Of a stretch of 64,000 nucleotides of DNA, positions 17,407 to 22,165 are shown one piece after another. The stretch covers positions 1-64,000 of the forward strand of contig JAIXOU010000099.1 in the NCBI GenBank assembly GCA_027486585.1, written 5' to 3'. Every line of letters begins with the position of its first letter. The first letter of the stretch is position 1. This DNA is from Verrucomicrobiaceae bacterium (GTDB lineage Bacteria; Verrucomicrobiota; Verrucomicrobiia; Verrucomicrobiales; Verrucomicrobiaceae). The notes beneath the pieces are model-generated. The model made no database searches. It had not been told where the DNA came from and saw only the letters and a list, made by a program, of their open reading frames with translations. The translations under genes and the position numbers were made by a program.

Positions 17407-17920
17407 TAGTTCCTGGTTCTTTGTTCTTCGTTCTTGGTTGCCCAGCAGGAAGCCAAAACTACGAACCAAGCCCCACGAACGAAGAACAAGGAACCAATAA
17501 CATGAAGATAACACGCTTTGAAGACATCAAGGGATGGCAGTTGGCTCGTGAGCTGACGCGACAAGTCTATGCCGTGGCCATGCGGGGAGCGTTTGCGAAG
17601 GACTTTGGACTTCGGGACCAGATCACTCGCGCTGCTGGCTCCTCAATGCACAACATCGCCGAAGGCTTCGATGGAGGAAGCAATTCCGAGTTCGCCAAGC
17701 TCCTGCGCTACTCCCAACGCTCATGTTCGGAAATTCAAAGCCAGCTCTATGTTGCCTTGGATCAATCCTACATCACCCAGGAGGAGTTTGATGCCATCTA
17801 CAACCAAGCCGCTCTCACCCATGCCAAAGTCGGCGGATTCATTCGCTATCTGCTAAACACACCCAGCCCTCGCTGACCCCTCTCCAACCAAGAACGAAGA
17901 ACAAGGAACTAAGAACTTTC
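17407..17920. mobile_element. 514-bp element with inverted ends and a four-helix-bundle gene
   Basis: A 32-bp inverted repeat (17408-17439 and 17886-17917, 29 of 32 positions matching) brackets a small gene. A third, internal copy lies at 17462-17500. The element is flanked by ATGAA at 17402-17406 and 17921-17925. Without the element plus one ATGAA copy, the upstream TGA stop and the downstream ATG would share one base (TGATG), a common coupled arrangement. This is good evidence for insertion into an older DUF1592-DUF1552 junction. No transposase is encoded, so it would have been mobilised in trans. The interpretation as mobile is inference. Confidence 0.6.
17502..17876 (+). CDS. Four-helix-bundle protein (23S rRNA intervening-sequence type)
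   Basis: A 124-residue all-helical protein of the S23/four-helix-bundle family, which includes proteins encoded in 23S rRNA intervening sequences and the Avd protein of diversity-generating retroelements. Typical motifs are the N-terminal [38 protein letters not shown] and the tyrosine/serine-rich third helix. The start ATG 17502 is supported by AAGGA nine bases upstream, which is itself part of a GAAC-rich repeat copy. The gene lies inside the inverted-repeat element and interrupts a DUF1592-DUF1552 pair. No reverse transcriptase or template repeat of a retroelement is present. Function unknown, nucleic acid binding is likely. Confidence 0.88.
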
Positions 17921-19306: not shown

Positions 19307-19482
19307 GGTGGAGTGTTGGAGTTTTGGAGTGATGGAGAAATGCCACAGCACTCCAGCACTCCAGCACTCCAGCACTCCGGTCCTACAGTACTCCGGTCCT
19401 ACAGCACTTCCCGACTGCGCCGCCCCCATTTCCCTCTCGCGAATGATTCCTCCAATACTCCAGCACTCCACTACTCCATCGC
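19307..19482. repeat. GGAGTG-rich low-complexity repeats with inverted arms
   Basis: The segment 19307-19337 repeats GGAGTG/TTGGAG units; 19346-19408 consists of four AGCACTCC-type units and two GTCCTACAG units in opposite orientation; 19450-19482 has more CTCC units. Together they can fold into long imperfect hairpins. The last part lies in the 5' end of the next coding region. A shorter relative is at 22075-22165. Confidence 0.75.
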
Positions 19483-20738
19483 TCCGTTGGATCGTGGCGC
19501 TGCGCTTGGGCCTTGCCCTACTCGCGACCTCCGCCTTCGCCGCCGAGGAGCCCTTCCGCCCCGAAGCTGGAAAGTTCCCGCCTTTGGAAAAAGCGCACTC
19601 TTACCGCGGCGAACTCGTCTTCGTGGATCATGCGAATCGTCGTGGCAGCATCCGTGTGACATCTCCGGGCATTTTCCGCTTCACTGCACCGCATCCGTTT
19701 GCTCTGCTGCCGTATGCCCTTGTGCGTTATCACGGCGCACCGGCCGACCTGCGCGACATTCCACTGGGAACGATGCTGCATGTCCGTGCGTTTCTCCCGC
19801 CGGACCCGAAAACGTCCGCCGTGCCCGTCTTGCCCGTGAACAATCGGGAGAAGACGAAAGCCGGAGCGCTTGGCGTCGCGCCGGCTGAGAACCACGTTCT
19901 GCTCCTCGAAGACGAGCCCAGCTACTGTCAGCGCGAAGGATTCGTCTGGAAGCTCAAGGAAGTGGAAATCAAAGATCGCGCTGGAACGATCCTCGCGAGT
20001 CGCAAAGCCAAACAAGACGCCAAAACGAAGCCCGTTGATGAAACGCTGACCTTCGATGCCGCCACGCGTGTCTGGCGTGGTCGCGAATGCCTCCGCATCG
20101 AGCACCTCATCGCCGAGGGCATTTGGCCCGCCGAAGGAGAAAAGGCTTTCGGCGGCCAGTCGGTGCAGATTGGCATCACTTGGAGGCCCACACCTAGCGG
20201 TGTGTTCAGTCGCTTTCACCTCTCCGACATCTGGCTCGACGACGACGCGATGCAAAACGCCACGCAGCATCAAACCGAGCTGCACAAAACCTTTATCCGC
20301 AGCCGCTGGATGCCCGCGTGGGTCAATGCGGTCGAGTATGGCAAGTTCGGCCGCGCCACCGTGACGGCGACCTTGTTTGGCGGCATGGATCCCACGCTCT
20401 ACGCTGATTTCAAAGCGGGCATCGCTGCGTTGATGAATGCCGCCGAGAACACCCTGAAGCACACCGAAGGCGGCACCGCCGGCCCCACCCAGATGGCTGC
20501 ACGCGGCAAGCTCCTTGATGTCACGCCACTGCCCGGGAAACCTTCGCTCGGAAGCAGCGGCATCCAGATCCGCTTTGAAACCGATCTCATCACCGAAGGC
20601 ATGCGCCCCGCGCGCATCGTCAAAGTGCGCCCTGCAAGCTGGCCCGATGTCCACCTGCCGCGCGAAGACTATCTCGGCAACGGAGCGTCCAGCATCGATG
20701 AGCGCTTCCCCACTCCGTCCATTTTTCCGAACTACTGA
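19443..20738 (+). CDS. Unknown secreted protein, paralogue A
   Basis: A 431-residue exported protein that I do not recognise. Hydrophobic segment LRLGLALLATSAFA at about 18-32 acts as signal peptide, with mature start near AEEPFRPEAG. From there on it is clearly paralogous to the next gene: shared blocks include SYRGEL-FVDHANRRGSIRV, VRYHGAPADLRDIPLGT, ENHVLLLEDEPS and the C-terminal GSSGIQI-FETDLI-EG. Residues upstream of the signal core (ILQHSTTPSL) are encoded by the GGAGTG-family repeat, so the real start may be the GTG at 19494. The repeated RDIPLGT and IWLDD strands suggest beta structure. It sits between a DUF1552 gene and its own duplicate, so a role in the same cytochrome pathway is likely but unproven. 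Confidence 0.75.
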   Translation: MIPPILQHSTTPSLRWIVALRLGLALLATSAFAAEEPFRPEAGKFPPLEKAHSYRGELVFVDHANRRGSIRVTSPGIFRFTAPHPFALLPYALVRYHGAPADLRDIPLGTMLHVRAFLPPDPKTSAVPVLPVNNREKTKAGALGVAPAENHVLLLEDEPSYCQREGFVWKLKEVEIKDRAGTILASRKAKQDAKTKPVDETLTFDAATRVWRGRECLRIEHLIAEGIWPAEGEKAFGGQSVQIGITWRPTPSGVFSRFHLSDIWLDDDAMQNATQHQTELHKTFIRSRWMPAWVNAVEYGKFGRATVTATLFGGMDPTLYADFKAGIAALMNAAENTLKHTEGGTAGPTQMAARGKLLDVTPLPGKPSLGSSGIQIRFETDLITEGMRPARIVKVRPASWPDVHLPREDYLGNGASSIDERFPTPSIFPNY

Positions 20739-20745
20739 TTATCTT

Positions 20746-22068
20746 ATGAAACCATTCCTTGTTCTTCGTTCCTTGTTCTTCGTTCCTAAAACCCTGGCCC
20801 TCACGTGCTCATTTGTTATCCTGGCAAACGTCACGAGCGCGGAACCAAGCACCAAGAACAAAGAACCAGGAACCGGCGCAGCCGAACCCTTCCGCCCCGA
20901 AGCAGGCAAGTTCCCGCCTCTTGAAAAAGCCCTCTCCTATCGCGGCGAGCTCATCTTCGTCGATCACGCGAACCGTCGTGGTAGCATCCGCGTGCAGGGA
21001 TCAGGCATGTTTTTCCGCAACGATCCGCATCCCTTCGCCATGTTACCGTATGGCATCGTTCGTTATCACGGCGCACCCGCCGATTTGCGGGACATACCGC
21101 TCGGCACCGTGATGCACGTGCACGCTTTCCTCCCGCCCGACCCGAAGACCTCCGCTGTGCCAGTCTTGCCCGTCGATAGCAAAAAAAACGATGCCAACCA
21201 CAACCGCGGCGCTGGCATCTTCCCCGCCGAGAACCACGTCCTGCTTCTAGAAGACGAACCCAGCCACTGCCAGCGCGAGGGACTCGTCTGGAAACTCAAG
21301 GAAGTGGAGATCAAAAACCACGCAGGCATGATCATCGCCATCCTCGAGCCAAAGAAAGGCGGCAACGGCAAGGCCACCGAAGAAAAACTGACCTTCGATG
21401 CCGCCACCCGCATCTGGCGTGGCCGCGAATGTCTCAGCATCGAGGAATTCATCGCCGAAGGCGCGTGGCCCGCCGATGGCAAAAAATCCCTCGGAGACCA
21501 GTCCGTCCAACTCGGCATCACCTGGAAGCCCACACCTGATGGCATCTTCACCCGCTTTCACATCTCCGACATCTGGCTCGACGACGCCTCCATGCAACGC
21601 GCCGCCAAGAACCAAACCGAAACGCACAAAGCCTTCATCCGCAGCCGCTGGATGGCTGCGTGGATCGACGCTGTTGAATACGGCAAGTTTGGCCGCGCCA
21701 CCATCACCGCAACCCTCTTTGGCGGCATGGACGCCTCGCTCTACGCCGACTTCACCAAAGGCGGCGCCGCCCTGATGAATCCAGTCGCCAACACCTTAAA
21801 GCACACCCACGGAGGCTACGGTCCCGCCCACATGGCCGCCAAAGGCCCCACCCTCGACCTCATCAAGTTGCCCGGCGAAGCCCCCCTCGGTAGCAGTGGC
21901 ATCCAGATCAAGTTCGAGACCGACCTCATCATCGAAGGCATCCGTCCTACCCGCATCGTCCGCGTCCGTCCCGCAAGCTGGCCCCAAGCCCAGGTCCCCC
22001 GTGAAGAATACCTCAGCGACAACCTCGAAGAGCGTTTCCCGGGTCCATCCATCTTCCCGAAGTATTGA
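20746..22068 (+). CDS. Unknown secreted protein, paralogue B
   Basis: A 440-residue tandem paralogue of the preceding gene, starting 7 bp after its stop. The mature regions align along their whole length from AEPFRPEAGKFPPLEKA to the FP-PSIFP-Y end. The first 45 residues differ completely. Their codons come from GAAC-family repeat arms: FLVLRSLFFVPK from the left arm (20755-20786) and EPSTKNKEPGTG from the right arm (20841-20874), with a hydrophobic core (TLALTCSFVILANVTSA) between them. The signal peptide was therefore rebuilt from, or invaded by, repeat DNA. No family name can be given. Confidence 0.75.
   Translation: MKPFLVLRSLFFVPKTLALTCSFVILANVTSAEPSTKNKEPGTGAAEPFRPEAGKFPPLEKALSYRGELIFVDHANRRGSIRVQGSGMFFRNDPHPFAMLPYGIVRYHGAPADLRDIPLGTVMHVHAFLPPDPKTSAVPVLPVDSKKNDANHNRGAGIFPAENHVLLLEDEPSHCQREGLVWKLKEVEIKNHAGMIIAILEPKKGGNGKATEEKLTFDAATRIWRGRECLSIEEFIAEGAWPADGKKSLGDQSVQLGITWKPTPDGIFTRFHISDIWLDDASMQRAAKNQTETHKAFIRSRWMAAWIDAVEYGKFGRATITATLFGGMDASLYADFTKGGAALMNPVANTLKHTHGGYGPAHMAAKGPTLDLIKLPGEAPLGSSGIQIKFETDLIIEGIRPTRIVRVRPASWPQAQVPREEYLSDNLEERFPGPSIFPKY
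20755..20874. repeat. GAAC-family repeat arms inside a signal-peptide region
   Basis: The left arm 20755-20786 reads TTCCTTGTTCTTCG units; the right arm 20841-20874 is in inverse orientation. The reverse complement of the right arm contains GTTCCTGGTTCTTTGTTCTT, identical to 17409-17428 in the four-helix-bundle element. The arms enclose 54 bp without a gene, like an emptied or minimal version of that element. Confidence 0.75.
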
Positions 22069-22074
22069 GGGAGA

Positions 22075-22165
22075 AGTGGAGTGCTGGAGTGTTGGAGAAA
22101 TGAGTCCAGCGAATCAGCACACCACATCTCATTAGTCCAAGATTCCACCACTCCACCACTCCATG
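22075..22165. repeat. GGAGTG-family inverted repeat before the LRR gene
   Basis: Left arm GTGGAGTGCTGGAGTGTTGG begins at 22076 and runs into GGAGAAATG; the right arm CACCACTCCACCACTCC lies just before and over the ATG at 22163. The left arm shares the GGAGTG-x-TGGAGAAATG pattern with 19326-19342. It fills the 94-bp gap between two genes of the cluster. Confidence 0.65.

What the first reader, a model, noticed from the sequence alone, without database searches (positions are those of the whole stretch)
20746..20880. Repeat arms domesticated as a signal-peptide region
Seen: two tandem paralogues align from AEPFRPEAG on, but the first 45 residues of the second are encoded by GAAC-family arms around a hydrophobic core. 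The right arm contains 20 bases identical to the end of the four-helix-bundle element. A mobile repeat seems to have supplied or rewritten the export signal of a gene.
Basis: partly seen in the sequence, partly recalled or inferred. Interest (0 to 1): 0.7.

Follow-up and report, generated by a model that had tools for sequence, protein, structure and literature searches.

The report
Signal-peptide leader encoded by DNA repeats
In a family of secreted bacterial proteins (Prosthecobacter and relatives), the export leader is encoded again and again by short DNA repeats that read as hydrophobic residues on one strand and hydrophilic residues on the other in every frame, so repeat DNA has become a lasting part of a gene.

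Summary
The second of two tandem paralogues (ATG 20746) starts with 46 residues that share nothing with its neighbour: an inverted GTTC-heptamer arm (20755-20787), a non-repeat core (20788-20841) and a GAAC-heptamer arm (20842-20873). Of 179 homologues with readable leaders, 95 carry a GTTC array, 71 a GAAC array (115 at least one) and 28 an unrelated octamer array; codon-shuffled controls give essentially none. In 64 genomes, 89 of 717 exact array hits lie in these leaders. Because 7 is not a multiple of 3, every frame of the GTTC strand reads hydrophobic (VLGSWFL) and every frame of the GAAC strand hydrophilic (EPRTKNQ). The leader here is shared with sister species, so it is no recent insertion, and its hydrophobic core is not repeat-derived: the arms supply the n-region and the spacer after the likely cleavage site. 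In short-leader relatives the array itself overlaps the hydrophobic region about half the time. The 20-bp match to the four-helix-bundle element is ordinary among arrays. Repeat codons persist without synonymous drift: renewal or DNA-level selection, unresolved. Export was not tested. One precedent exists (RU-2 in YPO1552).

The parts
20746..22068 (+). Gene 2, 440 aa: repeat-flanked leader (residues 1-46) plus conserved mature domain from EPFRPEAG; no Pfam or NCBIfam match
   Evidence: ORF; family and homologues
20755..20787 (+). Left (T) arm, GTTCYTN heptamers; encodes FLVLRSLFFVP (n-region side)
   Evidence: translation
20788..20841 (+). Non-repeat core KTLALTCSFVILANVTSA: h-region and probable cleavage site (A32/E33, judged by eye)
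   Evidence: hydropathy across the family; shared with sister species
20842..20873 (+). Right (A) arm, GAACNAR heptamers; encodes EPSTKNKEPGT, a hydrophilic spacer after the probable cleavage site
   Evidence: register conserved across the family
19443..20738 (+). Gene 1, tandem paralogue, 431 aa; leader MIPPILQHSTTPSLRWIVALRLGLALLATSAFAAE
19450..19494 (+). CACTCCAN octamer array that encodes the n-region of gene 1
   Evidence: family D2; homologous E-type leaders
19343..19411 (+). Upstream octamer array (ACTCCAGC) between the DUF1552 gene and gene 1
17409..17916 (.). Four-helix-bundle (TIGR02436) element bounded by GTTC (17409-17433) and GAAC (17892-17916) arrays, with another GAAC array at 17477-17494; ORF 17502-17876

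Best explanation
Gene 2 encodes an exported protein whose leader carries a domesticated inverted-repeat element. The GTTC arm encodes the n-terminal, partly hydrophobic part, a short non-repeat core is the h-region with the cleavage site, and the GAAC arm becomes a hydrophilic spacer at the start of the mature protein. The unit is 7 bases, so every frame of the GTTC strand reads as hydrophobic VLGSWFL-type peptide and every frame of the GAAC strand as EPRTKNQ-type peptide. A GTTC...GAAC inverted pair is its own reverse complement, so such an element placed at a gene's 5' end gives hydrophobic then hydrophilic in either orientation and almost any frame, the polarity of a signal peptide. An ancestor of the family most likely acquired such a leader; it was then inherited, exchanged between family members, re-formed or replaced many times, including by an unrelated octamer repeat. 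SHOWN by sequence: repeat coding, recurrence, in-frame starts, frame-independence, conserved register, lack of synonymous drift, patchy distribution. INFERRED: Sec export, original insertion as a mobile element, exchange and renewal of leaders.
For: Leader arrays in 180 homologues against codon shuffles: GTTC score of 20/25 or more in 95 of 180, none in 900 shuffles; GAAC in 71; octamer of 18/22 or more in 29. In-frame ATG within 60 nt upstream of the GTTC array in 87 of 95, against 37 and 7 in the wrong frames. K/R before the h-region and a small-x-small motif after it in 85 and 91 of 95 GTTC leaders. Six-frame hydropathy of ideal arrays +1.1 to +2.3 against -2.4 to -3.5, no stops. GAAC-arm register the same in 50 of 71. 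89 of 717 exact arrays in 64 genomes lie in about 22 kb of these leaders; in G051, G039, G062, G001, G002, G009, G114 and G119 all of them do. Inverted pairs outside the family: 11 T-to-A, 1 A-to-T. Sister species G038, G026 and G044 share arms and core. The leader type changes at least 77 times on the mature-domain tree (shuffled 104).
Against: No SignalP-type predictor or export assay was available; the signal-peptide reading rests on hydropathy, charge and an AxA-like motif. In both-arm leaders, including this one, the h-region is not repeat-derived. No transposase, target duplication or empty site was shown, so 'element' and 'insertion' are inferences. The conserved register argues for descent while the absence of synonymous drift argues for renewal or DNA-level selection; the model needs both. 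The tree is FastTree on a family prone to gene conversion, so the number of swaps is uncertain. Most genomes are MAGs.
Confidence: 0.68

Rival explanations
1. The arms are kept for an RNA or DNA role: the inverted arms form an mRNA hairpin around the signal-peptide codons (translation or mRNA-stability control), and the encoded residues are merely tolerated.
For: Both-arm leaders fold much more stably than shuffles (mean z -3.5; 67% of the left arm pairs with the right arm). Repeat codons persist although rare in the mature domain (GTT is 86-90% of array Val against 9-11%; CCA 90% of Pro against 8%; AGA 81% of Arg against 2%), also when leaders are chosen by amino acids only.
Against: Variable positions of the two arms do not covary (2.39 of 6 match against 2.71 for permuted pairs). 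44 leaders have only the GTTC arm, with the same conserved codons and no unusual folding (z +0.5). Mismatches to the right-arm motif are commoner at codon position 3 (16%) than at positions 1 and 2 (7%, 9%), a protein-level signature.
Confidence: 0.15
2. Fresh insertions: this leader position is an insertion hotspot for repeats, and the arrays are recent, mostly neutral passengers, each decaying after insertion.
For: Two unrelated repeats (heptamer, octamer) reach the same place; the leader type is labile; no synonymous drift; array third positions diverge almost as fast as mature fourfold sites in close pairs (0.21 against 0.26).
Against: The register of the GAAC arm is the same in 50 of 71 leaders, not spread over 7 phases. 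In several genomes the only arrays present lie in these leaders, so no donors are left. Sister species share arms, core and unit order.
Confidence: 0.15
3. Chance or convergence: hydrophobic signal peptides happen to use GTT/CTT/TTC codons, and the repeat resemblance is coincidental.
For: Signal peptides are rich in V, L and F (general knowledge).
Against: No codon-shuffled leader reached score 20 of 25, while 95 of 180 real ones did. The hydrophilic GAAC arm has the same heptamer period. Codons differ sharply from the mature domain.
Confidence: 0.01

Closest known systems
RU-2 repeat unit in Yersinia YPO1552 (Delihas 2007, PMC2759123)
   Different: One predicted case with a 168-bp element. 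Here short heptamer arrays recur in more than 100 homologues, read alike in every frame, and occur on both sides of the core.
Rickettsia palindromic elements (Ogata et al.; described in PMC10969869)
   Same: Palindromic elements inserted in frame into protein-coding genes and translated.
   Different: RPEs are about 150-bp unique sequences scattered over many unrelated genes. Here a 7-bp tandem unit is concentrated in the leader of one family.
Borg in-ORF tandem repeats (PMC9879509)
   Same: Tandem-repeat DNA encodes disordered, hydrophilic segments, often in exported proteins.
   Different: Units inside Borg ORFs are all divisible by three; here the unit is 7 (or 8) bases, and one strand encodes hydrophobic leader residues.
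Arrays bounding stand-alone four-helix-bundle (TIGR02436) genes
   Same: The same GTTC...GAAC inverted arrangement, with one such gene 3 kb upstream in this window.
   Different: There the arrays lie outside the ORF; in the leaders they are coding. Whether those units are mobile was not tested.

Membership tests
Sec signal peptide | Basic n-region, hydrophobic h-region, small-x-small c-region at the N-terminus | tested here: met
   K/R before the h-region and an AxA-like motif after it in most leaders of every class; gene 2: MKPFLVLRSLFFVPK / TLALTCSFVILAN / VTSA
Sec signal peptide | Directs export and is cleaved | not testable with these tools
   needs an export assay or N-terminal proteomics
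MITE-like mobile element | Terminal inverted repeats | tested here: met
   GTTC...GAAC order in 11 of 12 inverted pairs outside the family
MITE-like mobile element | Target-site duplication, empty sites, related transposase | not tested
   no empty-site comparison or transposase search was made
MITE-like mobile element | Dispersed copies in the genome | tested here: met
   38 exact array hits in the own genome, mostly intergenic
Borg-type amino-acid tandem repeat | In-ORF unit length divisible by three | tested here: not met
   unit is 7 bp

The most novel reading that the evidence does not exclude
Heptamer inverted-repeat elements act as portable, frame-independent and orientation-independent leader cassettes: because the unit is not a multiple of three and the element is palindromic, almost any insertion just after a start codon yields a hydrophobic segment followed by a hydrophilic spacer, and one secreted protein family uses this repeatedly to renew or swap its export leader.
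Probability: 0.35. Interest if true: 0.78.

Novelty: new variant of a known kind. Interest (0 to 1): 0.62.

Why it matters
It gives a large, comparable set of cases in which non-coding repeat DNA became, and stayed, part of a protein's export leader. The frame-independence is a simple reason why this repeat is pre-adapted for that role. The question of where new signal peptides come from becomes testable with natural replicates: homologues with 70-90% identical mature domains carry repeat, octamer-repeat or plain leaders.

Tried and rejected
Origin from the neighbouring four-helix-bundle element: rejected as unsupported, since 20-nt sharing is common among arrays. RNA hairpin as the main reason for the arms: weakened by lack of covariation and by GTTC-only leaders. 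General recruitment across many genes: in genus-wide hits with ATG just before an array, nearly all long ORFs starting there belong to this family; a VanZ-like 148-aa ORF (L199) and a 204-aa ORF (L225) are possible exceptions. ATG-versus-array orientation counts were not used as a test because CATG is palindromic. Structure prediction of the mature domain failed and was then switched off; PDB sequence search gave nothing meaningful; Pfam and NCBIfam gave no family. Literature searches found precedents but no description of this repeat; most subscription papers are not in the library.

Full report
WHAT IS THERE. The window lies in a Verrucomicrobiaceae genome whose genus-mates in public records are called Prosthecobacter (6.5 Mb, 147 contigs). 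Two tandem genes encode 431- and 440-aa proteins that align only from residue 44 of the second (71% identity). Neither matches Pfam or NCBIfam. Gene 2 begins at ATG 20746, seven bases after the stop codon of gene 1. Its first 46 residues, MKPFLVLRSLFFVPKTLALTCSFVILANVTSAEPSTKNKEPGTGAA, are encoded by a GTTCYTN array (20755-20787), a non-repeat core (20788-20841), a GAACNAR array (20842-20873) and three more codons.

IT IS NOT A ONE-OFF. I collected 180 distinct homologues with leader DNA from the order Verrucomicrobiales and from named genome records. The mature domain is strongly conserved (mean column identity 73% in a 26-sequence alignment) while the leader is not. A GTTC array scoring 20 of 25 or more lies in 95 leaders, a GAAC array in 71 and a CACTCCAN octamer array (18 of 22 or more) in 29; five codon shuffles per leader gave no GTTC or GAAC score that high and essentially no octamer score. 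By class (179 in the tree): both arms 51, GTTC only 44, GAAC only 20, octamer 28, none of these 36. Examples: MFLVPRSWFLVLVGSLVVTAHAANEAPGTKNQEP, MTRFLFVLGSSFLVLYLCAAHAVE, and in the isolate Brevifollis gellanilyticus MKQFFVPRSLFFVPCARRLVQFSLLVLVCWFAVDASAANEEPRTKNQEP.

WHY THIS REPEAT CAN BE A LEADER. Seven is not a multiple of three, so an array cycles through all codon phases and every frame reads the same kind of 7-residue cycle. Ideal GTTC arrays read VLGSWFL, VLGSLFF, FLVPGSS and similar in all three frames (mean hydropathy +1.1 to +2.3, no stops); the other strand reads EPRTKNQ-type peptide (-2.4 to -3.5, no stops). Inverted pairs outside the family are almost always GTTC first, GAAC second (11 against 1), an arrangement that is its own reverse complement. 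Such an element at a gene start therefore gives hydrophobic then hydrophilic whichever way round it lands. This is a deduction from the sequences, not an observed insertion.

WHICH PART IS THE SIGNAL. In both-arm leaders, including gene 2, the most hydrophobic decamer lies mainly in the core between the arms (it overlaps the GTTC array by half or more in only 6 of 51). In GTTC-only leaders the array overlaps it in 22 of 44. For gene 2 the repeat thus extends the n-region and supplies a spacer after the probable cleavage site A32/E33, whereas in GTTC-only relatives it often is the h-region. A start codon in the correct frame lies within 60 nt upstream of the array in 87 of 95 (37 and 7 in the wrong frames), which supports translation of the array.

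DESCENT, RENEWAL OR SELECTION. Three facts pull in different directions. (a) Register: the GAAC arm has the same phase relative to the mature domain in 50 of 71 leaders, and species G038, G026 and G044 share arms and core with gene 2; this means descent, not independent insertions. (b) Codons: repeat codons have not drifted. GTT is 86-90% of Val in arrays against 9-11% in the mature domain, CCA 90% of Pro against 8%, AGA 81% of Arg against 2%. Choosing leaders by amino-acid pattern alone still gives array scores of 20 or more in 72 of 78 (GTTC) and 45 of 46 (GAAC). Yet in close pairs array third positions change nearly as fast as mature fourfold sites (0.21 against 0.26), and the difference levels off in distant pairs (0.28 against 0.44), which fits renewal better than strict DNA-level selection; numbers are small. 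(c) Lability: the leader class changes at least 77 times on the mature-domain tree, against 104 with shuffled labels, and well-supported sister genes carry different classes. I favour early acquisition followed by exchange among family members and renewal of arrays, with DNA-level selection as an open alternative.

HOW SPECIAL IS THE FAMILY. In 64 genomes, 89 of 717 exact array hits lie in about 22 kb of these leaders (121 homologues x 180 bp), roughly 2000 times the share expected by length (my arithmetic). In G051, G039, G062, G001, G002, G009, G114 and G119 every exact hit in the genome is there. In the own genome most other arrays are intergenic. Genus-wide, the long ORFs that begin just before an array belong almost only to this family. 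The octamer also clusters at this locus in several genomes (G000, G003, G016, G038).

RIVALS. An RNA hairpin is predicted for both-arm leaders (mean z -3.5), but arm positions do not covary and GTTC-only leaders keep their arrays without it. Origin from the adjacent four-helix-bundle (TIGR02436) element rests on a 20-bp match of a length that 5 of 134 array pairs reach.

WHAT IS KNOWN. [quoted passage not shown] PMC2759123). Translated palindromic inserts are known from Rickettsia (PMC10969869), and in-ORF tandem repeats with units divisible by three from Borgs (PMC9879509). The kind is known; the frame-independent 7-bp unit, the recurrence in one family and the two-sided architecture are new to me and were not found in the searched library.

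LIMITS. No signal-peptide predictor or export data; structure prediction unavailable; mostly MAGs; a FastTree phylogeny of a gene family that may undergo conversion; related sequences are not independent samples, and the named-genome search used EPSTKNKE as one of its six seeds, a mild bias toward GAAC-arm leaders.

Noticed in passing
window 19443-19494 and homologous leaders: Gene 1's n-region (MIPPILQHSTTPSLRW) is encoded by an unrelated CACTCCAN octamer array; 28 homologues have this type. Eight is also not a multiple of three, so it too reads alike in all frames.
   Followed up: partly
L038 1501-1525 (own genome C60:14206-14235); antisense hits in L218, L201, L202: A GAAC array lies inside a long ORF (sequence suggests an FG-GAP/VCBS-type secreted protein) and would be read as ...NPTKNEEPGTKNF...; similar hits in other species suggest a second gene family with a translated array as an internal loop.
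   Followed up: no
window 17409-17916: TIGR02436 four-helix-bundle gene bounded by GTTC and GAAC arrays between two genes of a planctomycete/verrucomicrobial-type operon; the downstream DUF1552 gene starts directly after the right array.
   Followed up: partly
window 22067-22163: The next gene (LRR protein, ATG 22163) also starts immediately after an octamer array (CCACCACTCCACCACTCC).
   Followed up: no
L157 (Limnoglobus roseus PX52, complete genome): A planctomycete carries a homologue 81% identical with a plain leader, suggesting horizontal transfer between phyla.
   Followed up: no
L199 1501 (G005 C3): A VanZ-like 148-aa ORF begins MRSGSSSFLVLGSS, with an array-encoded N-terminus.
   Followed up: no
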